Below are positions 870 through 14,802 of a DNA stretch of 33,953 bases, in pieces (position 1 is the stretch's first letter; each line of letters begins with the position of its first letter). The DNA lies in assembly GCA_023150535.1 (NCBI GenBank), contig JAKLKS010000014.1:1-33953 (forward strand). Reading direction: 5' to 3'. Both the position numbers and the translations under genes were made by a program. Source of the stretch: Planctomycetota bacterium (GTDB lineage: Bacteria; Planctomycetota; JAJSAM01; JAKLKS01). Under the pieces are notes generated by a model. The model worked only from the letters and a program-made list of their open reading frames with translations, made no database searches and was not told where the DNA came from.

Positions 870-946
<77 letters not shown>

Positions 947-1136: not shown

Positions 1137-2294
1137 TTAGCCCTTCGCGGGCGCATTCAGGCCCTCGTCGGCAGCCTTCCGGGCGGCGTCATCCGTGGAG
1201 TCCAGCGCCCGCACGGCCGCGACCTCCGCGTTGTCGGGCACGTGCGAGGCGTAGCGCGAGGTGAGCGCCAGGGAGCCGTGGCCGGCCAGCGCCTTCACCG
1301 TCGGTAGCGGGACCCCGCTCTGCGCCAGCCTCGAGCAGAATGCGTGGCGCAGCCCGTGAAAGGTCACGGTGGGGAAGCCCGCCGCGGTCGCTGCCTTCCG
1401 GAACCTCGACGCCACGAAGGTGGCGGCCCACGTCGGCTCGAGGTTGGCGATATGGGCGAACACGAAGTCCGGATTGCCCTCCTCGGGGCCGGTCCGTTCC
1501 CCGCGGAGCGCCTTCAGGGTCTCCCTCGCGCGCTGGGTCATGGGGACCTCGCGTGGGCGCTTGCTCTTGCTCTTCCGGACCACGACGACGCCGCGCCCGA
1601 GCTGGACGTCCCTCCACTCGAGGGAAAGGAGCTCCCCGCGGCGGAGACCGGTGTCGGCGGCGACCGCGATCAGGGGACGCAGCCGGGCGTCCGCGGCGTC
1701 GATGATCCGGTCGATGTCGGCGGCCGTGAGGAAGGGGACCTCCTTCTGCTCCTCGCGGGCCCGCTTCACGGCGCGGACGGGGTTCTCGTGGGCGTAGCCT
1801 CGCTCCATGGCCTCCTTGAAGGTGTTCGACAAGACCGCGAAGTACCGGTTCACGGTCGACGGCCGGGCGTGCTTGCCCTTGTGCAGGCGCTTGCTCCGCA
1901 TCCAGGTCCGAAAGTCCTCGATGTCGGACGCCTCGAGCTCGCAGATCGGGCGGTCCCCGAAGAACTCCTGCAGGACTTCGTAGCGGTTCTTGTCCGAGGC
2001 GTAGGCCTTCGGGGCCAGCCGGGCAGCGAGGATCGGCTCCAGCGTCGGCCAGAACTTCTCGAACGTGATCCTCCGGGTCTCGACGACGCCGAGCTTCTCA
2101 CGCTTGAGGAGCGCCGTCTGGATCTGGGCCAACTTCGCCTCCGCCATCGCCTTGGAGGGGCCGACGGCCCGGAAGATGTCCCGTCCCTTGCGGCGGTACC
2201 TGATGTACCAGATCCGTCCGCGGAGGAGGACCTGCCCGAACGACCGCCGCTCCTTCTTCTCCTCCGCTTCCTGCGCCTTCTGGATCTTCGACAT
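1137..2294 (-). CDS. Tyrosine recombinase/phage-type integrase
   Basis: TGLRRGELLSLEW, HGLRHAFCSRLAQSGVPLPTVKALAGHGSLALTSRYAS: R...HxxR...GH...Y catalytic set, with N-terminal SAM-like core-binding region. Confidence 0.92.
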   Translation of the reverse strand: MSKIQKAQEAEEKKERRSFGQVLLRGRIWYIRYRRKGRDIFRAVGPSKAMAEAKLAQIQTALLKREKLGVVETRRITFEKFWPTLEPILAARLAPKAYASDKNRYEVLQEFFGDRPICELEASDIEDFRTWMRSKRLHKGKHARPSTVNRYFAVLSNTFKEAMERGYAHENPVRAVKRAREEQKEVPFLTAADIDRIIDAADARLRPLIAVAADTGLRRGELLSLEWRDVQLGRGVVVVRKSKSKRPREVPMTQRARETLKALRGERTGPEEGNPDFVFAHIANLEPTWAATFVASRFRKAATAAGFPTVTFHGLRHAFCSRLAQSGVPLPTVKALAGHGSLALTSRYASHVPDNAEVAAVRALDSTDDAARKAADEGLNAPAKG

Positions 2295-2375
2295 GGTGGA
2301 CTACTTCCCTCATGCGCGACTCGGCGATGGCTACTGCGGAGCCAGCTCACACTCGTGACGCCGGGCCCGCCCTTG

Positions 2376-2639
2376 CTACGGCAGGTACTTCTCGATGCCG
2401 GCGTCCTGCTCGGCCGCGATGAAGCGGGCGTCGAGCGCGACGCGCCGGACGTACAAGCGCCGGCCGATGCGGGCTCCGGGCAGCACTCCCTTGGCGATCA
2501 TCGAGCGGACCGTGTCCTCGTGGACATCGAGGATCTCGCTCAGTTTCTCGACCGTCAGGTACTCGCCCTTGCGGTTGGGCGACGGCGGCTCAGTGGCAGC
2601 GGCCTGGGCCCTACGCGCCATGGGAGGCCCCCGGGCCAC
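2376..2639 (-). CDS. Excisionase-like helix-turn-helix (HTH_17) protein
   Basis: YLTVEKLSEILDVHEDTVRSMIAKGVLPGARIGRRLYVRRVALDARFI. Confidence 0.75.
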   Translation of the reverse strand: MARGPPMARRAQAAATEPPSPNRKGEYLTVEKLSEILDVHEDTVRSMIAKGVLPGARIGRRLYVRRVALDARFIAAEQDAGIEKYLP

Positions 2640-2895
2640 CTTCGAGGGTCTTCAGGAAGGCTCCCAGGTCCTCGCGGGCGAAGATCATCCGGCCGGAGCC
2701 GCGGGCGTGAGACTTGAAGTAGCGGAGCCTCCCCGCCTTCGCCCACCTGCGGACCGTCCGAGGGTGGACGTTGAAGATCCTCGCCACCTCGGCGAGGGGG
2801 AGGAACTCGTCCTTCCTGGCGAAGAGCGCTTCCGCATGGATCTGCGGTACGCGGAGGTGCGCCGGGATCCCGTCCTGCGGGTTATCGGTGGTCAT
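2611..2895 (-). CDS. Second HTH_17/excisionase-like DNA-binding protein
   Basis: FLPLAEVARIFNVHPRTVRRWAKAGRLRYFKSHARGSGRMIFAREDLGAFL; start placed at internal MTTDNPQ. Confidence 0.72.
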   Translation of the reverse strand: MTTDNPQDGIPAHLRVPQIHAEALFARKDEFLPLAEVARIFNVHPRTVRRWAKAGRLRYFKSHARGSGRMIFAREDLGAFLKTLEGGPGASHGA

Positions 2896-4504
2896 GACCT
2901 GTCCTTGTTGTTGGTGGTGTAGGTGCCTCATCGATGGGGGTCGAAATCGATAGAGGAGGGGGGACCCGGCCGGGCCCACCGGGTGCATCCATCCCCCCTC
3001 CCTCCTCGATCTGGGTTACGCGGCACGCGGCGGCATCCGACCGGTTCCCGTTGTGCTCGTTCTTGCAGTAGTCCCTCAGCCGGATGACGCCGAGGGCGCC
3101 GTACAGCACGCCTTCAGGGTCCTGGTTGAGTTCTTCCTGCATCTCGGGGAACCTGCTGAGGGTTTCCTGCAGGGTGAGAAGTACGTGCTCGTCCATGGCT
3201 GCGAAGGCCATGGGGAAGTTTCCGTAGGTGAAGTAGTCCCTCCAGCCGACGAGGTACTCGTTGGCCTTCTTGACTATCTCCCTTGCGGGCGCGGACCTCG
3301 TAGGGTCGGAGACCTTCTTGGTGAACCTCTTCCTGGCGTTCTCTAGAGCCTTGTCGGCCGGGCGCACGGGTACTCCGCTGCCCTGGACAGGTCCAAGGGT
3401 GAAGCCAAGGAAGTCGAAGGGCTCCTTTGAGGAGCCGCGAACGCAGGACTTCTCCCGGTTCAGTGTCAATCCCATCTCGGAGAGCGCCTGGTTGGCCCAC
3501 TCGTACGCCCGGTCCGCGACCTGCCCGGACGGGCAGAGGATCACGAAGTCGTCGGCGTAGGAGACGAGCGACCCTTTCATCTCTCCGAGGAGGACCAGGC
3601 TGTTCCACATCTTGATGAAGCCATCGAGGTAGAGGACGGCGAGCATGGGGCTGATGACTCCGCCCTGGGGCGAGCCACGCACCTTGCGCCTACCGCTCGT
3701 GAACACCACGTGACCCTTCTCGTCACGTTGCTTCACCGGAGACTTGAGCCACATCCTGATGAGGCCGAAGATGCGCTTGTCGGAGAGGCGCCGGGAGACC
3801 ATCGACAGGAGGTCGGCGTGCGGGATTGAGTCGAAGTACTTGGATAGATCCGCATCGACGACGAACCTTTCGTCCCTTGCTAGGCATGTGCGGATCGCCT
3901 GTAGGGCTGTCTTCTGGTTGCGGCGCGACCGGAAGCCGTGGCAATTGTCGGTGAAGTCCGCTTCGAGGATGGGGCCGATGATGAGCAGGACGGCGGTCTG
4001 CACGACACGGTCCTCGACGACCGGGATGCCGAGCGGCCGCGACCCACCTTCAGGCTTCTCGATGAGAACCCGCCTGACCGGCTGAGCCTTGTACCCTCCT
4101 TCCCGCAGGCGGTCCCGGAGTTCCCGGAGCCACTTCTTCCGTCCGTACCTCTCGATGTCCTCGAAGGTCCTGCCGTCGACCCCGGGGGCTCCCTTGTTCT
4201 TCTTCTGGAGCCAGAGGGCCGTGGCGAGGACGACTTCGCGGAACACGTGCTGGTACAGGTTGTGGAAGCGGCGGTCTGGGTTCTCCTTTGCCGCTGCGTA
4301 GAGCTTCCTCTGAAGGCGCTCGACCTTGTCGAAGCGGGCTGGTAGGCGCTTCCGTGCGCCAGTCCCGCGGCCTGCGGCTTCTTCGGTTGCGTTGTCCCAC
4401 GTGAGCTCGGCGATCTCGATCTCGTCCATGGGGACGGGATCGTCAGGGCCAGGGGGGCCCGAGTTGGAAGCCTGGGTTCCCGTGAGCTGCGTGGGGTCGT
4501 GCAT
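2882..4504 (-). CDS. Group II-intron-type (LtrA-like) reverse transcriptase
   Basis: KGAPGVDG, RPLGIPVVEDRVVQTA, DADLSKYFDSIPH, GSPQGGVISP, SYADDFVIL, thumb/X-like C-terminal region; start MHDPTQ chosen because AGAAGGACGGA precedes it (longer ORF begins at 4603). Confidence 0.9.
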   Translation of the reverse strand: MHDPTQLTGTQASNSGPPGPDDPVPMDEIEIAELTWDNATEEAAGRGTGARKRLPARFDKVERLQRKLYAAAKENPDRRFHNLYQHVFREVVLATALWLQKKNKGAPGVDGRTFEDIERYGRKKWLRELRDRLREGGYKAQPVRRVLIEKPEGGSRPLGIPVVEDRVVQTAVLLIIGPILEADFTDNCHGFRSRRNQKTALQAIRTCLARDERFVVDADLSKYFDSIPHADLLSMVSRRLSDKRIFGLIRMWLKSPVKQRDEKGHVVFTSGRRKVRGSPQGGVISPMLAVLYLDGFIKMWNSLVLLGEMKGSLVSYADDFVILCPSGQVADRAYEWANQALSEMGLTLNREKSCVRGSSKEPFDFLGFTLGPVQGSGVPVRPADKALENARKRFTKKVSDPTRSAPAREIVKKANEYLVGWRDYFTYGNFPMAFAAMDEHVLLTLQETLSRFPEMQEELNQDPEGVLYGALGVIRLRDYCKNEHNGNRSDAAACRVTQIEEGGGMDAPGGPGRVPPPLSISTPIDEAPTPPTTRTGHDHR

Positions 4505-4595
4505 TCCGTCCTTCTGTCTGCCTCCAGTGCCGGACCATCCGGAACTTCGGGCTTGTGCGTCCTGCAAACCGACAGAAGTGTAACCCCAGATCGTC

Positions 4596-4624
4596 CATAA
4601 CATACTGTGAGGCAGTAAGTTATG
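4596..4624. promoter_or_regulatory. Near-perfect inverted repeat upstream of the RT gene
   Basis: CATAACaTACTGtgaggCAGTAaGTTATG. Confidence 0.55.
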
Positions 4625-4644
4625 GTGACTGACTCAGAAGGAGT

Positions 4645-4659
4645 GGTGAGTGGCTCACC
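4645..4659. promoter_or_regulatory. Second short hairpin between the 391-aa gene and the RT
   Basis: GGTGAG-TGG-CTCACC. Confidence 0.4.
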
Positions 4660-4698
4660 GGACGGTGACGCTACGAACACCGCTCCGGCGGATCGGAC

Positions 4699-5874
4699 CT
4701 ACTGCTTCGGTGGCCACGACCGCCGGAAATGGTACATGGTCGCGGTTGTGTACCGGGGCAAGACCCAACTGGTCACTTCGCGGCACACTCGAAGCTCCGG
4801 ATCGTTCTCCATCGCGCGCTTGATCTGTGAAATCCAGTCGTCAGGCTTGGAGAACCTGCCGCGCGGTTCGGGCTCACCAACTGCCACAACGCGCTCCGTG
4901 ACCCTGGCCTTCAGGTTCGCGTCGCTCACACCCTTCTTACCGGCGAGCTCCAGTTCCTTCACTACGGCTGCCCGCAAGGGGCTCAGGTCGAGTTCGCCGA
5001 GCCCGAGGATTGAGAGGCGGCCCCTTCCGGTCTTCCTGTTGAGCTTCAACTTTGGCCAGACGCCTGGCTTCGGCCGGCGACAGCCTCTCTCGTGACGCCG
5101 TGCAACTGGGCAGTCGCAGAAGTGCCCGGTCTTGGAGAGCGCTCGGATCTGGCTCGCCGGAGTGAGGTGGAACCACCTCGCCGCCGAAACAAGGCCTTCT
5201 ACGGCCTCCGTCTCCTGGAGTGGAGAGCCGTCGAGGCCCAGCGCGGTCGACTTCTCGCTTGGGTCTCTCCAAGAGTGGGTAGGAGCGATGAGGACCCTTG
5301 TCTCCTCGAGACGTCCTGCCAGCAGGAGGCCGGACCCCTCGGGCCACCGATCCGGGCGTAGGAGTGGGAGCAAGGGCCTCCTGCCTTGGCCCGGCTTGCC
5401 TGGGTGGAGGACCATGCCGATGGCGACCGAGGAGAGAGCGCCAGCCCACAGTCCCTCGGGCCACTGCTGCCCCGTCGTCCAGGCTACGTCCTCTTCGGTG
5501 CCTTCCAGCTCGGCACCGCTTCCCGCGATTTCGGATAGGGCGGCCTTCTCCGCAGACCCCAGGTCCGCCTGGCCCCACGCCTGTCGCTTCCTCTCGTCAA
5601 CGTCGTACATCACGCCTGCCTGGACAGGGAGGAGCAGCACGATGCTCTTGCCGGGTTCCGAGGACCAGCGGGAGAACTCGGGGTCCCGATACGGTGCCCC
5701 TTCTGCCGGTGGATAGGGGGCAGCAAGGACGAGGCACTGGCGGTCCCTCAGATGCCTCCAGACATCCTCAGCGAACGCCTTCCACGTCACCGACGTGGTC
5801 CCTTGCGGGGCGGCTGCAGGCGGGTCGGAGACGATGAGGAGCCTCGGTTCCTTGGGCAACATGGCAATGTCCAT
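4699..5874 (-). CDS. Hypothetical protein (391 aa), possibly co-transcribed with the RT
   Basis: Long ORF with protein-like composition; Cys/His cluster HFCDCPVARRHERGC; no family recognised. Confidence 0.7.
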   Translation of the reverse strand: MDIAMLPKEPRLLIVSDPPAAAPQGTTSVTWKAFAEDVWRHLRDRQCLVLAAPYPPAEGAPYRDPEFSRWSSEPGKSIVLLLPVQAGVMYDVDERKRQAWGQADLGSAEKAALSEIAGSGAELEGTEEDVAWTTGQQWPEGLWAGALSSVAIGMVLHPGKPGQGRRPLLPLLRPDRWPEGSGLLLAGRLEETRVLIAPTHSWRDPSEKSTALGLDGSPLQETEAVEGLVSAARWFHLTPASQIRALSKTGHFCDCPVARRHERGCRRPKPGVWPKLKLNRKTGRGRLSILGLGELDLSPLRAAVVKELELAGKKGVSDANLKARVTERVVAVGEPEPRGRFSKPDDWISQIKRAMENDPELRVCREVTSWVLPRYTTATMYHFRRSWPPKQ

Positions 5875-6071
5875 CGTAGGGCACGTGGGCGTCTCCGAGC
5901 AACCCTACGGTCCCCAACGGGCACGTCTGACCCACAGTGTCATCCCTGTTCAGCAGCGCCAACGTGCATGCCAGCTGGACCCTAGGAACCGCGCAAGCCA
6001 GAGGCGGGAAACCGTTTTTTCGATTGATCGGCAGCCGCCGGGCGGAGCCGGGGCGGCATGGGGACTGGACG

Positions 6072-6842
6072 CTACTGGACACCGTCCGGACCGGGCTCCG
6101 CGGCGGCGCGGCGGGCGTTCTCCTGCCACTGCTTGACCTGGGCGGCCCGAACGGCCCGCGCCGCGTAGTACTCGGGGTAGAGCTCTTCCATGGACTTCGG
6201 GCGCTCCTCCTCCCGCGGGCGGTAGTTGTCGCGCATCCAGCGGGCCTTGCAGCTCTCCCGCCACCACGTCCAGAGCATCCCGTTGGAGTCCTCCCAGATC
6301 CGCTCCACGTCCAGCCCCAGCTCCCTCAGGCGGGCGACGACCATGTCCGTCCTGCGCCGGAGGCAGGCGTTGGCGCCCGCGTTCTGGTAGCGCATCGCGC
6401 CCTCGTGGGACGGCGTCTTCACGATGCCCGGGATGCGGTCCGCGCACCGCCAGGTGGCACGGGTCCGGTAGACCATGGCCTCGGCGAACAGGGTGACGGC
6501 CCGGAGCACCTCCTCGCCCGGCTCCTCGCCCTCCCCGTAGTCGAGGATGCGCACGAGGTCCTTCACGAGCGCGTCGCACTTGACGTACTCGATGATGCAG
6601 GTGCCCCCCGTGTCCTGCGAGATGGCCTTGATCTCGTCGGTGCAGCCGTACACCCGCCGGTAGCCGCAGGTCCCTTCCGCACCCTTGGGGCACGCGATGA
6701 AGGCCCGCTCGCCGAGGGGCACGGCGTTCTTGGCAACGGGGGCGCGCGACAACCCGTGCGAATAGCGCCGGCACTTGCGGAGACGCGAGGGAGGTGGCTG
6801 TTCCCGTGATGCGACTTCGGCGGTGGAATTGTCGTCGGACAT
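6072..6842 (-). CDS. Hypothetical Cys-containing protein
   Basis: ORF from MSDDNSTAEVASREQ; multiple Cys; no family recognised. Confidence 0.65.
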   Translation of the reverse strand: MSDDNSTAEVASREQPPPSRLRKCRRYSHGLSRAPVAKNAVPLGERAFIACPKGAEGTCGYRRVYGCTDEIKAISQDTGGTCIIEYVKCDALVKDLVRILDYGEGEEPGEEVLRAVTLFAEAMVYRTRATWRCADRIPGIVKTPSHEGAMRYQNAGANACLRRRTDMVVARLRELGLDVERIWEDSNGMLWTWWRESCKARWMRDNYRPREEERPKSMEELYPEYYAARAVRAAQVKQWQENARRAAAEPGPDGVQ

Positions 6843-6963
6843 AGCGTGGATCTCCGTCGCGGCGGGGCGCATGTGGCTCCACTCACTGAAACCACGATAG
6901 AATATTGTACTTCATCCAAAGACGCTGTCGCCGCACCGCGCCAACTCGTCCAGGAGGTCCACC

Positions 6964-7416
6964 GTGAAGCGCGACTCTCTTTTCGTGAGGTATCCCCATT
7001 ACAGGAAGTTCCCCGGAGGCGCGAAGGCCGCGGAACCCCTAGTCCTCTGGGCGTGGTCCCGCTACCCGGAGACCGTCGTGGACCCGTCCTTCCTCTACAT
7101 CCGCGTCGTCCAGAAGGCCCTCGGCCTCGAGGAGGACCCCTGGGTCTACTACCTGTTCCGCAGCCTCGCCATCGCGATGGCGCTGACCCCGGTGCCGACA
7201 CCCCAGGAGGTCGAGGAGGCCGTGGCCGCGATCCGGGCCCGCGGACTCACCCGGGAGGAGTGGGACGAGTACCGTCGGGACGAGGACGCCGGGAAGCCGG
7301 AACTGGGCCCGGAGCACTTCCCCAAGAAGCCCGCGACGGGGAAGCGGGGCCGGCGGGAGCCGGTACCCGCGGACCCGCCTTCGGCGTCAGGTCCGGAGCT
7401 CCCCAGGGCAGCGTAA
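6964..7416 (+). CDS. Hypothetical protein (150 aa)
   Basis: GTG start preceded by CAGGAGGTCCACC; protein-like N-terminal 110 aa. Confidence 0.6.
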   Translation: MKRDSLFVRYPHYRKFPGGAKAAEPLVLWAWSRYPETVVDPSFLYIRVVQKALGLEEDPWVYYLFRSLAIAMALTPVPTPQEVEEAVAAIRARGLTREEWDEYRRDEDAGKPELGPEHFPKKPATGKRGRREPVPADPPSASGPELPRAA

Positions 7417-7431
7417 GTAGGCCGATTGGGC

Positions 7432-7474
7432 TTGCCATGTTCACGGAATGTGCTATGTTCATGGGTGCATGAAC
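7432..7474 (+). promoter_or_regulatory. Putative promoter (TTGCCA-N16-TATGTT) with operator palindrome GTTCATG-GGTG-CATGAAC overlapping the antitoxin start codon
   Basis: Perfect 7-bp inverted repeat 7457-7474; -10 candidate 7454-7459; ATG 7469 lies inside the right arm. Confidence 0.5.
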
Positions 7475-8629
7475 AAGCCATCTACCGTGAACCTGTCGAT
7501 GCCCCCTGGAGGGGCCCTGGAGCAGCAACTGCTGGCGAAGCTCCAAGACCTCCTGGCGGGGGTCCCCTGGCTCCCCGCGGCGAGGCTCGATCACCATCCC
7601 GTCGGCCGGAACGCGAGGGGGGACTTCGTCGTGCGCCTCGCCCGCGCGGACGGGAGGGCCGCGGAGCTGCATGTCCACGTCAAGACCGACATGCGCCCCA
7701 GCCAGTTCCACGCCATGGACCACGCGTGGCGCGGTTCCCGGGCGGGCCAGACCGCCGTTCCCATCCTCGGGGTCACCTTCGCATCCGACCGTCTTTCCAA
7801 GTTCTGCCGGGACGCGAAGTGGAGTTGGTTCGACCTGGCGGGGAATTGCTGGATCGACGTGCCCGACTTCCTCCACATCGAGCGGGCCGGCAACAGCCCG
7901 GTCTACCGACGGCCTCCTCAGGGAGCGAGCCTGGGCTCCACTGCCGCGGCGAGGCTCGTGAGGGCCGTGCTCACCCCCGTACACGCCGGCAGGGCGTGGA
8001 AGCAGCGGGACCTCCAGTCCGACACCTGCTGGCCGTCGCCGGATGGCCGCGGAGTGAGTCTCGGCCTCGTCAACAAGGTGGTGAACCACCTCGTCGAGGA
8101 GGACTACCTCGAGCGGGCCAGCGACGGTGTCCGCCTGAAGGAGGCACCCGGCCTACTGGCCGCGTGGAACAAGGCGTATCGGTTCGACCGGCACCAGCGC
8201 CTGAGCTACTTCACCCTGCTGAAGGGCCAGCGGCTCGCGGAGGCGCTCGGCAGAGTCGGCTTCGAGTCCGGCAACCTGGCTGCCTACGGATCGTTCTCCG
8301 CGGCAGAGCGCCAGACGCCCCATGTCCCGCAGCCGAAGACCTGGGTCTACGTCGATGCAGGGTACAAGGACCTCCTCGTGCGCCAGACCGAGGCCAAGGA
8401 AGTGGACTCGGGCGAGAACCTCGTCGTGCTGATCCCGGACGACCTGGGCGTGATGGTCCAGTTCACGGGCGGTGATGAGGGCCACATCGGGGAGAGGCGC
8501 CTGCACTGCACCGACCCCGTGCAGACCTACGTGGACCTCATGCACAGCGGGGGACGTGGCGAGGAGGCGGCGCAGGCCATCCTGGAGCAGAAGCTCCTCC
8601 CGGCGTGGAAGGCCGCGGGTGCCGCATGA
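7469..8629 (+). CDS. AbiEi-like type IV toxin-antitoxin antitoxin (winged-helix)
   Basis: Winged-helix-like region (GVSLGLVNKVVNHLVEEDYLERASDGVRLKEAPGLLAAWNKAY), C-terminal AbiEi-like half, overlap with a downstream nucleotidyltransferase gene. Confidence 0.65.
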   Translation: MNKPSTVNLSMPPGGALEQQLLAKLQDLLAGVPWLPAARLDHHPVGRNARGDFVVRLARADGRAAELHVHVKTDMRPSQFHAMDHAWRGSRAGQTAVPILGVTFASDRLSKFCRDAKWSWFDLAGNCWIDVPDFLHIERAGNSPVYRRPPQGASLGSTAAARLVRAVLTPVHAGRAWKQRDLQSDTCWPSPDGRGVSLGLVNKVVNHLVEEDYLERASDGVRLKEAPGLLAAWNKAYRFDRHQRLSYFTLLKGQRLAEALGRVGFESGNLAAYGSFSAAERQTPHVPQPKTWVYVDAGYKDLLVRQTEAKEVDSGENLVVLIPDDLGVMVQFTGGDEGHIGERRLHCTDPVQTYVDLMHSGGRGEEAAQAILEQKLLPAWKAAGAA

Positions 8630-9468
8630 ACACCGAGCCGAGGACGAAGGACGACTACGGGGATCGCGCGACGGAGGCGGCGCACCGGGTGCTCGTGGAC
8701 CTCGGCCAGGTTCTCGGTACCTACTTCCTCGACGGCATCGTCGTCGTCGGGGGCATGGTCCCCGACCTCCTCGTGAAGGACCCCGGGGAACGCCACATCC
8801 CGAGCCTGGATGTAGACCTTGCGCTGGACCCGGACAAGCTCACGGACGGCAAGTACGCGGAGATGGTGAAGGCGCTCCTGGACACGAAGAGGTACGCCCT
8901 CACGGAACACGCTTTCAAGCTCCGCACGGTGGTGGACCTCGGAGACGGCGGACCTCCCATTCCCGTGGACGTTGACTTCCTAAAGCCGCCGGGAAGGTGG
9001 CCGAGGGACGCGTCGAAGACGGTCCCGGGGTTCCGGCCCCTGGACGCGGAGGCCTGCCGGGCTGCCTTCCTCGCCCCGCAGACCGTGGACGTGAAGGGCC
9101 TCAACACCACGGGGGCAGAGAACACCGTCCACGTCAGCGTGACGTCGCTCGAGGGCTTCTTCATCCTGAAGGCGTACGCGCTCGGCGGGCGCGACAAGCC
9201 GAAGGACGCCTACGACCTCTGCTACTGCATCGAGGAGTCGCCGGATGCCGCGGGCGCGGTCGCCCGTGCCTGGCGCTCCAAGATGGGAGATCCGCTCGTG
9301 GCGGAGTCGCTGCGCATCCTTCGGGAGAAGTTCGAGACGGTTCGGTCGTTCGGGCCGCAGCAGGTCGTCCTCTTCCACAACTCGCCCTCCGCCGAAGAGA
9401 GGGAGCGGCAGGCGCAGTCGGCCTTCCAGTTCATGCGCCGCTTCCTGGAGATCGTCGACGGCGCCTGA
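8626..9468 (+). CDS. AbiEii/AbiGii-like nucleotidyltransferase toxin
   Basis: VVVGGMVPDLLVKD...SLDVDLALD (GG...DxD nucleotidyltransferase motif), ATG overlaps upstream stop. Confidence 0.72.
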   Translation: MNTEPRTKDDYGDRATEAAHRVLVDLGQVLGTYFLDGIVVVGGMVPDLLVKDPGERHIPSLDVDLALDPDKLTDGKYAEMVKALLDTKRYALTEHAFKLRTVVDLGDGGPPIPVDVDFLKPPGRWPRDASKTVPGFRPLDAEACRAAFLAPQTVDVKGLNTTGAENTVHVSVTSLEGFFILKAYALGGRDKPKDAYDLCYCIEESPDAAGAVARAWRSKMGDPLVAESLRILREKFETVRSFGPQQVVLFHNSPSAEERERQAQSAFQFMRRFLEIVDGA

Positions 9469-9720: not shown

Positions 9721-12700
9721 ATGTCCGTCCCGTCCCCGGGGGGCAATCGCCCCCTCGTGGCCGTCGTCGTGGCCACCCACGACCGCACGGCCCTCCTCCG
9801 GACCCGCAGCCTTCCGTCCATCGTTGCCCAGAGGCTGCAGCCCGACCTTCTCGTCCTCGCCGACGACTCCAGCGAGGAGGCCAGTCCCGAGAACGAGAAG
9901 GCCCTCCGGTCGCTGGCCCTTCCTCCGGACAGCCTCGTCTACCTCGGGAACTACCGGACGAAGGGCGCCGCCGGTGCGTGGAACACGGCGCTCGACTGGC
10001 TGCACCGAAAGCACCCGGATCCCGGTCGCGTTTTCGTCGCCTTCCTGGACGACGACGACTCGTGGGAACCCGGCCACCTGGAGGACTGCGTCGCCGCCGC
10101 GGCCGCCGACGACCTCGACGTCGTGGCGTCCGGCCTCTTCCGCGTCGACCACCAGCCCCACGAGCAGCGTCCCCCGGCCGCCCTGCGGGCCGAGGACATC
10201 CTCGTGGGCAATCCCCACATACAGGGGTCGAACCTGTTCGCCCGGCTGTCCGTGCTCCTCGAGGTCGGGAACTTCGATGAGAACCTGACGAACTGCACCG
10301 ATCGGGACCTGTGCCTCCGCATCTGCGATCTCGGGAACGTCCGCTACGGCCCGACCACCTCGGTCACGGTCCGCCACTACGCCGACCGCGATCGGCCCCG
10401 GATGAGCAACCCCGCCACCGGGAGCCTAGACCACGGGAGGACGCAGTTCTGGCTCAAGTACGAGGGGCGGATGACGGAGGCGGTCCGGGAGGCGTCCGCC
10501 GCGCGGGCAGCCCGGCTCTTCGGATGGGAGCCGCCACCCCCTCTGCCGGCGGTCCGGACAGAGGTTCCTGCTGCTCCGCCGTTCGAGATCCCGTTCCCGC
10601 TCGTCGCCGCTGTCGCCACCAACAGCCCCGCCCGCGTCCGGCCCCTGCTCGAGCAGCTCTGCCGGATCGGGCTTCGGGCGACGGGCGGCGGCCTGGACGT
10701 GCTCCTTCTCGCCAACGGGGACGGCCCCCTCGACGACGAGCTCTCGGTGATGGTGGAGGAGATGCGGACCCAAGGGCTGCGGTGCTACCTGCTGTCCCGA
10801 GCCCGGCAGGCCGAGGACGCGCGAAGGGGCGTGTTCGGTCCCGGCTTCACCGTCCCGGTCGGCGCCGCCGAGATCGGCGCGACGCGGACGATGCTGCAGG
10901 TCTACGCGTACGACTTCGCCCGCAGGAGGCCCGGCGCGGTGGTCTGGGTCCTCGACGACGACCTGCGTCCGGACCTCGCCGACCACTACCTCCCGCGCCT
11001 GGCGGAGTTCCGCGCGCAGGGGGTCCACGTCGTACTCGGCTCGTACTCCAGCGCGCCGCCGCTCCCCATCGCCAGCTGCGTCCGGGTCCAGCTCGTGGAC
11101 CTCCTGCACAACCTCCACTGGCTCCGGGGGCTTCCTCCCGATGCCCCGATCCCCGACCGCTCCGGCGAGAACGCCCGCCACCGGGCGAAGTACCCGGACT
11201 ACTACTACGACCTCTCCCGCGCCTGCACCGGGCAGCTGGAGGTGCCGTTCTTCGTGGAACCGGCCTTCCCCGGGGAGACGGCGCGCCAGGCGGAGGCGCG
11301 GCTCGTCGCGTCCGCGGTCCGCATGCTCGCGGGGGAGCAGGTCACGCGGCCGTTGCCGGCGGTGCTGGCAGGGGACCCGATCCAGGAGGCCAGGGAGTCG
11401 GTGGAGCGGGGAGGCAACACCTTCGTCCTCGACATCGAGGCCCTCCGCGACGCCCCCAACCTCGTCCCCCAGCTGGGGGGCCAGGAGACCCGCCGCTCGG
11501 ACATGATCTGGGCCGTCGTGCAGCGGCGCCGCTTCGGCCGGCGGATCGTCCGGGTGGACTTCCCGCTGCGCCAGGACCGGAGCGACCTGCCGCCCGCGGG
11601 CCTCGGCGTGGAGAAGCTCGTGCCCGACATCGAAGGCTATGCCCTGCGCACCGCCCTCCACGAGGTGCTCAAGGAGAAGGCGATCGGCGAGGGGGCCCTG
11701 CAGTTCTCGGACGCGGAGGTCGCGCGTGCCTGCCGGCGTGCGGCCAAGTACCTGGAGGAGCGGCTGGCGGCCTTCTCCCTGAGCTTCTACAGGATCCGGG
11801 GTCTCTCCCGCGCCCTCCGCCGCCTGGACGCCTCGGGTGCGCTCTCTCCCCTGCTCGATGCCCTGGACAGGGACTACACGCCCGAGAACCTTTCCTTCGT
11901 CCGGGAGCGTGTGCGTGTGCTCGGCACCGGCGAGGTCAGCGCCTTCCTGCGGGACCTCGACCGGCGCGTGTCGGAGTTCCGCGGGGTGACGGTTGTTCCG
12001 GAGGACCTGGAGCTGCAGCGGGTGGACAACGCGAGGCGCCAGGTCCTGAGGATGTGCAGCCCCCGGGGCGACCTCCACCTTCTCGGCTGCGGGAACGAGG
12101 CCGTCGTGCTGACCGACGGTCTCACGGTGTTCAAGTACGTCGACTACTGGAAGGCCGCCGGGTCCTCGGCCGCCCGCACCTTCCTGAGTGGACTCGTGGG
12201 AACGTGGCGGGAGAGCCGCTCCCTGTACCCCGTGCTGGCCGTCCGCGAGGAGGGTGTGCACTTCATCCTCGAGTACCCCTTCGAGGAGAGCGAGCCGTAC
12301 GTCGGCGGCCATGGTCCGGGCCTCGTCGCCCTCCTCCGCGAGTGCCGGGAGCGGGGGCTCGCCTGCCGGAACATCCACCCCGACAACCTCCGGGTGGTCG
12401 GCGAGCGCGTGGTCCTGGTGGACTACGGATCCGACCTCCGGCCGCTCACGGACGGGGAGTTCCTCCACATGTGCCGCCGGGCGTGGCTCTCCTGGAGATG
12501 GCACCACCGGCCGGACCTCAAGGCCCTCATGACGAAGGCCCTGAAGGACACGACCCTCCCGGAACTCGATGGCTTTGAGCGGTTCCAGGAGGCGGTCAAG
12601 GGCACGGACGTGAAGGAGAGGCTCGACTCCCGCCTCGCCGAGATCGCCCTCGAGAGGAGCCCCCGGCGCGTCCTCGATGTCGGGTGCGGGAAGGGGGACC

Positions 12701-14802
12701 TCGTTACGCGGCTCAGGGAGGAGTGTGCAGACGCGGTCGGCTTCGACCCCGACGCATCGCTGGCCGTCACAGCGTGGCCCAAGCGCGGCCAAGGGTCCGC
12801 GCTCACTGGCGACCTGGAGATCGTGCGCGCCCGGGGCCCGTTCGACGTCGTGGTGTCGGAGCTGGTGCTGTGCTCTCTCCACGACGATGACGAGTACCGG
12901 GGGGCCCTGGGGACGCTGCGCTCCCTCGTGTCCCACGACGGGCAGATCCTGATCGCCGTCTGCGATCCGTTCTTCACCCAAGGTGGGCCGACCTCCTTCC
13001 AGGAGCGGACCCTCCCCCCGAACGCCGCCTACGAGCAGAGCTTCAACTGGACCAAGCGGGTCCATCGGGGCGGGGACCGTTGGGGAACGAGGGTCGATCG
13101 GCACCGGCCGCTCGAGCGCTTGGAGCGGGATCTCCTGCGCGCCGGGCTGGAGGTCCTGGACGTGGAGCCCGTCCCGACCGTCGACCTGGTGCGCTTCGAG
13201 CCGGCGTCGGAGTTCCTCATCCTGAAGGCCCGGCCGGTCCCGCCGGTGCCCGCCCAGGTCTCGCTCCTCATCAAGGCCTGCGCCATGGACTGGGAGTCCG
13301 TCCACGAGCAGGTGCCCCATCTCGTCGACCAGCTGGAGAGGCCGCACGCCTTCGCGGAGCGGGTGGTGGTGGTGGACTCGCGTACGGACGGCTTCGTCCG
13401 CCAGTACGCCCGGCCGGACCTGCCGCGGCTCCTCGAGGAGCTGGAGGTCCTCCGGGAGGCGGGCGTCATCGACCGCGTCGTCCGTGCAGAAGGTGTCGAG
13501 GCGTTGATGGAGCGCTGGACGGGAAGGTCGACCGTGCATGGGCACTCCGTGAAGGGCGCCCCGCTGTCCGCCTTTTTCGCGGGGGTCGAAGCCTGCTCGG
13601 GCGAGTTCGTCCTCCAGGTCGATGTCGACATGATGGTCGGGAGGGATCCCGCGCGCAGCGACTACCTGACCGGGATGGTGCGCCTCCTCCAGGAAGACCC
13701 TCGGGGCCTCACGGTTGCGATGCCGATCCCGAGGAACTCACCTCTCCCCTGGACCAGCGAGGAGCGCTGGCGCGTGGAGGTCCGGGCCTGCCTGTTTCAC
13801 CGGGAGCGGCTCCTGGCCTGCCGTCCTCTGCCCGTGGACTACGAAGGCGACGTGCCCACCCTGTCGTGGCACCGCGCGCTGGACCGCCTCGTCCAGGACC
13901 GCCTCTGGACCTCCTACCGCGGCGGGGGCGACGGCATCTTCGCCATCCACCCTCCGAACGACCGGAAGAAGTGCGTCGATGGCTGGCTGGCCGTCCTCGA
14001 CGGCATCGAGCGAGGGCAGCTCGCTTCAAGTCAGCGCGACCACGCGGAACTCGTCGCCGACCCCGCGGAGTGGCTCCTGCCGAAGCGGGAGGAGCCCTAC
14101 GTGTTCGTCGTCTGCGGCCGGGATGTCCCCCCGGGCCGCGCCCAGCGCTGCCTCGACTCCCTGCTTCGCCAGGAGGGGGGCGACTGGGGCGTCGTCCTGA
14201 TGGACGACGGCTCCTCGGCCCGGTGCTCCCGCTACCTGTGCGAGGCTGCGAGGGGGTTCGGGGCCAGGGCGACCCGGGTCCGGGTCCGCCGCCGGCGCGG
14301 CCTCCTCGCCAACCTGGTCTGGGCGATCCGCCATGTCTGCGTCGACCCGGAGACGGTGATCATCACGGTGGACCTGGACGACTGCCTGCTCGGCCCCGGG
14401 GTCCTGGCCCGCGTGCGCGAGGCGTACGCGCGGGGTGCCGAGGTGACGGTGGGCTCCATGCTCCGGACCGACAAGTCCGCCCTCTACCCCGTCGACTTCG
14501 AGGATCCGGTCCGGGGGAACGTCTGGCAGCACCTGCGAACGTTCAAGAAGAGGCTCTTTGACCAGGTGCCCGAGGCACTGCTGCGGCCGGACGGGGAGTA
14601 CGTGGACATCCCCAACGACTGGGCGTTCATGCTCCCCATCGTGCAGATGGCGGAGCGCAAGGAGTGGATCCGCGACCCGCTCTACCTCCACGAGCCCTCG
14701 GGCGTGGGCAAGGGGCGGGACCGGGAGCGCCGGGAGACCGAGATCGGGTGCGTGGTGGAGCGGTTCCGGGCGTGGCGGGCGGGCAACGCGAAGGAGCGGT
14801 AA
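9721..14802 (+). CDS. Giant multidomain protein: GT2-like, GT-like, kinase-like, SAM methyltransferase, GT2-like, GT2-like
   Basis: VVVATHDR...FLDDDDSW; VVWVLDDDLRP; GCGNEAVVL...FKYVD...RNIHPDNLRV...LVDYGSD; RVLDVGCGKGDLV; FVLQVDVDMMVG; VVLMDDGSS...IITVDLDDCLLGPGVL; SD AGAAAGGAG. Confidence 0.88.
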   Translation: MSVPSPGGNRPLVAVVVATHDRTALLRTRSLPSIVAQRLQPDLLVLADDSSEEASPENEKALRSLALPPDSLVYLGNYRTKGAAGAWNTALDWLHRKHPDPGRVFVAFLDDDDSWEPGHLEDCVAAAAADDLDVVASGLFRVDHQPHEQRPPAALRAEDILVGNPHIQGSNLFARLSVLLEVGNFDENLTNCTDRDLCLRICDLGNVRYGPTTSVTVRHYADRDRPRMSNPATGSLDHGRTQFWLKYEGRMTEAVREASAARAARLFGWEPPPPLPAVRTEVPAAPPFEIPFPLVAAVATNSPARVRPLLEQLCRIGLRATGGGLDVLLLANGDGPLDDELSVMVEEMRTQGLRCYLLSRARQAEDARRGVFGPGFTVPVGAAEIGATRTMLQVYAYDFARRRPGAVVWVLDDDLRPDLADHYLPRLAEFRAQGVHVVLGSYSSAPPLPIASCVRVQLVDLLHNLHWLRGLPPDAPIPDRSGENARHRAKYPDYYYDLSRACTGQLEVPFFVEPAFPGETARQAEARLVASAVRMLAGEQVTRPLPAVLAGDPIQEARESVERGGNTFVLDIEALRDAPNLVPQLGGQETRRSDMIWAVVQRRRFGRRIVRVDFPLRQDRSDLPPAGLGVEKLVPDIEGYALRTALHEVLKEKAIGEGALQFSDAEVARACRRAAKYLEERLAAFSLSFYRIRGLSRALRRLDASGALSPLLDALDRDYTPENLSFVRERVRVLGTGEVSAFLRDLDRRVSEFRGVTVVPEDLELQRVDNARRQVLRMCSPRGDLHLLGCGNEAVVLTDGLTVFKYVDYWKAAGSSAARTFLSGLVGTWRESRSLYPVLAVREEGVHFILEYPFEESEPYVGGHGPGLVALLRECRERGLACRNIHPDNLRVVGERVVLVDYGSDLRPLTDGEFLHMCRRAWLSWRWHHRPDLKALMTKALKDTTLPELDGFERFQEAVKGTDVKERLDSRLAEIALERSPRRVLDVGCGKGDLVTRLREECADAVGFDPDASLAVTAWPKRGQGSALTGDLEIVRARGPFDVVVSELVLCSLHDDDEYRGALGTLRSLVSHDGQILIAVCDPFFTQGGPTSFQERTLPPNAAYEQSFNWTKRVHRGGDRWGTRVDRHRPLERLERDLLRAGLEVLDVEPVPTVDLVRFEPASEFLILKARPVPPVPAQVSLLIKACAMDWESVHEQVPHLVDQLERPHAFAERVVVVDSRTDGFVRQYARPDLPRLLEELEVLREAGVIDRVVRAEGVEALMERWTGRSTVHGHSVKGAPLSAFFAGVEACSGEFVLQVDVDMMVGRDPARSDYLTGMVRLLQEDPRGLTVAMPIPRNSPLPWTSEERWRVEVRACLFHRERLLACRPLPVDYEGDVPTLSWHRALDRLVQDRLWTSYRGGGDGIFAIHPPNDRKKCVDGWLAVLDGIERGQLASSQRDHAELVADPAEWLLPKREEPYVFVVCGRDVPPGRAQRCLDSLLRQEGGDWGVVLMDDGSSARCSRYLCEAARGFGARATRVRVRRRRGLLANLVWAIRHVCVDPETVIITVDLDDCLLGPGVLARVREAYARGAEVTVGSMLRTDKSALYPVDFEDPVRGNVWQHLRTFKKRLFDQVPEALLRPDGEYVDIPNDWAFMLPIVQMAERKEWIRDPLYLHEPSGVGKGRDRERRETEIGCVVERFRAWRAGNAKER

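What the first reader, a model, noticed from the sequence alone, without database searches (positions are those of the whole stretch)
2882..5874. Stand-alone group II-like RT with an uncharacterised upstream partner
The RT has group II motifs (GVDG, SPQGGVISP, YADD, X-like domain). The upstream gene ends only about 95 nt before the longest RT ORF. Its stop overlaps the next HTH gene, and I see no domain V-like GAGC...GAAA...GUUC element. There is no space for a group II ribozyme. This points to a domesticated group II-like RT, possibly in an operon with the 391-aa protein bearing a HFCDC...H...C cluster. RTs of this kind include defence and repair RTs.
Basis: partly seen in the sequence, partly recalled or inferred. 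Interest (0 to 1): 0.78.

Follow-up and report, generated by a model that had tools for sequence, protein, structure and literature searches.

The report
Reverse transcriptase freed from its intron
This planctomycete gene encodes an apparently intact reverse transcriptase that descends from mobile self-splicing (group II) introns but has lost the intron RNA around it, and it now sits, beside a protein with no known relatives, in the integrase operon of a mobile DNA element; what it does is not known.

Summary
A complete group II-family RT ORF (2882-4603 minus, probable start 4504) keeps the YADD, SPQGG, GVDG and maturase motifs. No group II RNA is found in the window, and none over cut-off in the 88%-complete genome. 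By contrast, 85 of 88 related RT loci scanned with the same library carry intron RNA. The RT is not a UG/DRT, retron, CRISPR or G2L4 enzyme. It is a long-branch sister of 26 intron RTs (support 97/97), so the ribozyme was lost on its own lineage. One trait sets it apart: the thumb/X/D surface has net charge -1, against +15 (sd 4, minimum +7) in 57 relatives, while the polymerase part keeps its normal charge. The gene overlaps an HTH-excisionase-integrase cassette and follows a 391-aa ORFan after a non-coding spacer of about 194 nt with a short dyad. Best reading: a free-standing, probably active, co-opted group II RT carried by an integrative element. Partnership with the 391-aa protein and a defence role rest on context only; the pairing is seen once, so co-occurrence cannot be tested. 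A recently captured, decaying ORF remains possible. New member of a known, paraphyletic kind (group II-like RTs without a ribozyme).

The parts
2882..4504 (-). group II-family RT without ribozyme, probably 540 aa (longest ORF to 4603, 573 aa); YADD, SPQGG and domain X present; N-terminal 1-52 and C-terminal 485-540 predicted disordered
4505..4698 (-). non-coding spacer between the 391-aa gene and the RT
   Evidence: negative coding score in all six frames; z = -2.5 fold for 4480-4720
4595..4625 (.). AT-rich dyad CCATAACTTACT(G)-CCTCA-(C)AGTATGTTATGG (minus strand), operator- or hairpin-like
   Evidence: one of three such 12-nt dyads (at most 1 mismatch, short loop) in the 34-kb window
4699..5874 (-). 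391-aa ORFan with HFCDC..H..C cluster; possible partner
   Evidence: best coding score in this frame; no homologue in any library or collection searched
2611..2895 (-). HTH_17/MerR-like DNA-binding protein, overlaps the RT 3' end
   Evidence: PF12728 2e-10
2376..2639 (-). excisionase-like HTH protein
   Evidence: TIGR01764 35.7 bits, over cut-off
1137..2294 (-). tyrosine integrase
   Evidence: PF00589 3.6e-32
870..946 (-). tRNA-Asp(GTC) next to the integrase
6072..6872 (-). 266-aa protein of unknown function, first gene of the minus-strand block
   Evidence: one homologue in the same order, in a genome where the RT query found no match
7448..9468 (+). AbiEi/AbiEii-like type IV toxin-antitoxin pair, divergent neighbour
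   Evidence: PF09952 1.8e-8, PF08843 6e-7

Best explanation
A group II intron RT of the RF02003 (D1D4-4) lineage lost its ribozyme and became an ordinary protein-coding gene of an integrative element, probably co-transcribed with the element's HTH, excisionase and integrase genes. Shown: intact RT with all catalytic motifs, no intron RNA, origin inside ribozyme-bearing introns, loss of the basic thumb/D surface, overlap with the HTH-xis-int cassette. Inferred: it is translated and active as a free-standing polymerase on a template other than intron RNA. Inferred more weakly: it is accessory cargo, perhaps defensive, working with or regulated alongside the 391-aa protein and the spacer RNA or operator.
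For: 85 of 88 related RT loci carry group II RNA by the same Rfam models; the window has none and the genome none over cut-off. Tree: sister to 26 intron RTs, 97/97, with intron outgroups, end branch 1.18 against a median of 0.3. The 432-codon core is open; simulated neutral drift to 72% amino-acid identity leaves it stop-free in 2.5% of runs, and to 61% in 0.5%. In an earlier 29-row alignment it keeps 69 of 78 highly conserved columns, and the catalytic columns are invariant. Thumb/X/D net charge is -1 against a mean of +15.1, sd 3.9, while the RT part is normal at +16. In structures, the group IIC thumb and D domain form the basic cleft that binds the DNA insertion target (PMC12337344), so its loss fits release from retrohoming. 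The model is confident for the core and matches GsI-IIC RT best (6ar1, 6.9e-26). GC3 of RT (0.81) and p391 (0.78) both fall below their neighbours (0.88-0.94).
Against: It is a singleton: no orthologue without ribozyme was found, so purifying selection cannot be measured. p391 has no homologue, so a functional pair cannot be shown. Spacers of about 194 nt (p391-RT) and 197 nt (p266-p391) argue against one tight operon for the whole block. Most bacterial group II copies are truncated or inactive (PMC4424553). The genome is fragmented (529 contigs, 88% complete).
Confidence: 0.6

Rival explanations
1. Intron relic: recombination captured only the RT ORF, or deletion removed both ribozyme halves, and the ORF is not maintained but has not yet decayed.
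For: Long branch; low basic charge could be relaxed constraint; the last codons are atypical (GC3 0.21); decayed copies are common in bacteria (PMC4424553).
Against: No stop or frameshift, all catalytic columns kept; the charge change is confined to thumb/D while the polymerase part keeps its normal charge; no ribozyme remnant on the 3' side; stop codons would be expected after more than slight drift.
Confidence: 0.22
2. Free-standing maturase that splices an ORF-less group II intron elsewhere in the genome.
For: Domain X is present; trans-acting intron-encoded proteins are known in cyanobacteria (PMC4424553).
Against: No RF00029 or RF02003 match over cut-off in the genome; the best sub-threshold hit is a GC-rich stretch without a group II look; the basic thumb surface is lost.
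Confidence: 0.06
3. DRT- or retron-like defence system: the RT copies an RNA from the p391-RT spacer, and p391 (Cys/His cluster) is the effector.
For: Upstream non-coding spacer with a dyad and a mildly stable fold, z = -2.5; AbiE pair next door; known DRT9 and DRT10 systems use ncRNAs (PMC12489045, PMC12632851).
Against: Best family match is group II maturase (317 bits); retron St85 gives 30 bits and Drt2 52 bits against its cut-off of 390; intron relatives score much the same on UG/DRT models; one sequence only, so no covariation; p391 has no defence-library match.
Confidence: 0.15
4. DNA-repair polymerase like G2L4 RT.
For: G2L4 is a precedent for a domesticated group II RT; a related intron RT itself has basal double-strand-break repair activity (PMC12337344).
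Against: YADD, not YIDD; no insertion before RT4 that its intron relatives lack; much closer to intron RTs than to G2L4 (1.6e-49 vs 4.6e-12); sits in an integrase operon.
Confidence: 0.1

Closest known systems
Mobile group II introns of the RF02003 (D1D4-4) type, e.g. L005, L063-L068; solved relative GsI-IIC RT (6ar1)
   Same: RT 0-7 motifs, thumb/domain X, about 38-44% identity, best phylogenetic neighbours; GsI-IIC is the best fold match
   Different: no D1-D4 or domain V/VI RNA, thumb/D charge about 16 units lower, N- and C-terminal disordered extensions, overlaps an integrase operon
G2L4 RT (domesticated, DNA repair)
   Same: ribozyme-free, free-standing group II-derived RT, fast-evolving
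   Different: YADD instead of YIDD, no plug insertion, distant in sequence (4.6e-12), different phylum
G2L5 group II-like RTs of Planctomyces/Blastopirellula (Simon and Zimmerly; PMC4244168)
   Same: Planctomycetota, RT with maturase domain, no intron RNA
   Different: relationship untested here (sequences not at hand); the group itself is not well supported, and one member lacks GIIM (PMC8934634)
L028/L062 RT (G135, Planctomycetota)
   Same: group II RT without detectable ribozyme, reduced charge at the C-terminus
   Different: separate origin (AU test against a joint clade p = 0.0125), GIIM region diverged, different neighbours

Membership tests
mobile group II intron | RT/maturase ORF with RT0-7 and domain X | tested here: met
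mobile group II intron | domain V/VI and D1-D4 RNA around the ORF | tested here: not met
   positive in 85 of 88 relatives
mobile group II intron | basic thumb/D surface typical of this lineage | tested here: not met
   net -1 against +7 to +25
group II-like RT without ribozyme (G2L in the broad sense) | group II RT with conserved maturase domain and no intron RNA | tested here: met
   definition from PMC4244168
G2L4 | YIDD motif | tested here: not met
   YADD
G2L5 | clusters with the Planctomyces/Blastopirellula sequences | not tested
   reference sequences not retrieved
CRISPR-associated RT | cas1/cas2 or CRISPR array nearby | tested here: not met
   no cas match among the neighbours scanned, no repeat array in the window
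UG/DRT | match over the curated cut-off of a Drt model | tested here: not met
   Drt2 52 bits vs 390, Drt3a 33 vs 200
UG/DRT | anti-phage activity | not testable with these tools
   needs phage challenge
retron | retron RT family match | tested here: not met
   St85 30 bits vs cut-off 235

The most novel reading that the evidence does not exclude
An RT that left mobile introns independently of G2L4, CRISPR RTs and DRTs, discarded its intron/target-binding surface, and was rebuilt into a new integrative-element system with a 391-aa partner and a spacer-encoded RNA or operator, for example a new class of defence or element-control RT.
Probability: 0.2. Interest if true: 0.75.

Novelty: new member of a known kind. 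Interest (0 to 1): 0.42.

Why it matters
Domesticated group II RTs show how a retroelement enzyme gains a new job. This locus offers a case where the enzyme can be placed right beside its ribozyme-bearing relatives, and where one clear change, loss of the basic thumb/D surface, marks the departure. If orthologues exist, the steps of co-option could be tested directly.

Tried and rejected
Single-sequence AlphaFold of p391 failed (mean pLDDT 35). Pattern searches for p391 in viral and genome contigs and for p266 in viral contigs, and tblastn of p391 in plasmids and phages and of p266 in plasmids, gave no relative; weak p391 hits at E 0.004-1 in other genomes are short and scattered. tblastn extension of the RT tail into intron domain V regions suggested a ribozyme remnant, but a profile of 20 intron 3' ends finds nothing at that place in the window, so it was rejected. 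The first tree included a wrongly framed ORF (L002) as outgroup; it was replaced. The attachment site was not resolved: no direct repeat of the tRNA 3' end was found in the window.

Full report
What is there. The minus strand carries a block of genes in the order p266 (6072-6872), p391 (4699-5874), RT (2882-4504), HTH (2611-2895), excisionase-like HTH (2376-2639), tyrosine integrase (1137-2294), followed by tRNA-Asp (870-946). RT overlaps HTH, HTH overlaps the excisionase gene, and the integrase follows after 81 nt, so these four look like one operon (inference from spacing). The p391-RT spacer scores as non-coding in all frames, which puts the RT start at 4504. An AbiEi/AbiEii-like pair lies divergently at 7448-9468. 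The host belongs to the Planctomycetota: a contig that the genome search places in the window's phylum (G280:C179, 28,892 bases) has the same length and match start as a contig that the genome collection names as Planctomycetota (L085).

The RT. It matches RVT_1 and the group II maturase domain, passes the NCBI group II RT/maturase cut-off (317 vs 300 bits), and is far below the cut-offs of Drt and retron models. Ordinary intron RTs score similarly on the UG/DRT and CRISPR RT models of PADLOC, so those hits say nothing about defence. By sequence the closest solved relative is GsI-IIC RT (1.6e-49), ahead of G2L4 RT (4.6e-12). The AlphaFold model (30-row alignment, core mostly above 90 pLDDT) again matches GsI-IIC RT best. 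All catalytic columns are intact.

No ribozyme. No group II RNA is found at gathering level in the window, at E<=5 over 2000-7000, by domain V pattern beyond chance, or by a profile of the 3' ribozyme of its closest introns. As a positive control, the same Rfam models find group II RNA in 85 of 88 related loci: 27 of 29, 19 of 19, 20 of 20, 19 of 20. The three exceptions are L028 (another apparent ribozyme-free RT), L033, and L194, whose contig starts just before the RT. The whole genome, 88% complete, has no RF00029 or RF02003 hit over cut-off.

Origin. In a 58-row maximum-likelihood tree the window RT is sister to 26 RTs (97/97 for the joint clade; 99/93 for the 26), most of which were shown to carry RF02003-type or domain V RNA; the outgroups are mainly introns too. 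Its end branch (1.18) is about four times the median. A joint clade with L028 is rejected (p-AU 0.0125), so ribozyme loss happened at least twice in this phylum, with the caution that both rows are long branches.

What changed. Over the thumb/X/D stretch (residues 378-465) the window protein has net charge -1, against a mean of +15.1 (sd 3.9, minimum +7) in 57 relatives; the polymerase part is normal at +16. The basic helix ending in RRHK in relatives reads LSRFPEMQEEL here. In group IIC RTs the thumb and D domain form the basic cleft that binds the insertion target (PMC12337344). The simplest reading is that intron/target binding was abandoned while polymerisation was kept. Relaxed constraint is the alternative. 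Simulated neutral drift makes an open frame unlikely after more than slight divergence (2.5% of runs at 72% identity), but a recent capture cannot be excluded.

The neighbour p391. Its frame is the best-scoring of six but weaker than its neighbours'. GC3 is 0.78, close to the RT (0.81) and below the int/xis/HTH/p266 genes (0.89-0.94), which hints that the two arrived together. It has no homologue in Pfam, PADLOC, NCBIfam, PHROGs, PDB, viral contigs, plasmids, phages, GTDB species contigs (pattern search) or 395 genomes of the phylum. Co-occurrence therefore cannot be tested, and the fold prediction failed.

Verdict. A ribozyme-free group II-derived RT: shown, about 0.9. Maintained and active: likely, about 0.6. 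Partnership with p391: open. Defence or repair: possible, not shown. Ribozyme-free group II-like RTs with a maturase domain, including planctomycete ones (G2L5), are already described (PMC4244168, PMC8934634), so this is a new member of a known, loosely defined kind.

Noticed in passing
L062:8086-9636 (G135:C108), same RT as L028: A second planctomycete group II RT (516 aa, TIGR04416 323 bits) without detectable ribozyme and with a diverged maturase region, downstream of a glycosyltransferase-like ORF; independent of the window RT.
   Followed up: partly
L002:1501-2025 (G000:C122:19596-20120): The same genome encodes a retron-type RT on another contig (PADLOC retron RT models, up to 161 bits).
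   Followed up: no
L151 (G000:C496:20000-39999): A second integrase (37% identical) lies beside another tRNA-Asp copy; the tRNA region of about 236 nt is 79% identical to the window's, and an AbiEi-like hit is nearby: a possible sister integrative element.
   Followed up: partly
window 7448-9468 (+): AbiEi/AbiEii-like pair next to the RT block.
   Followed up: no
window 9721-14802 (+): A 1693-aa fusion of glycosyltransferase, methyltransferase and glycosyltransferase domains, with a 1039-aa antisense ORF (10426-13545) that is probably a high-GC artefact.
   Followed up: no
window 4595-4625: AT-rich near-perfect dyad in the GC-rich p391-RT spacer, operator-like.
   Followed up: partly
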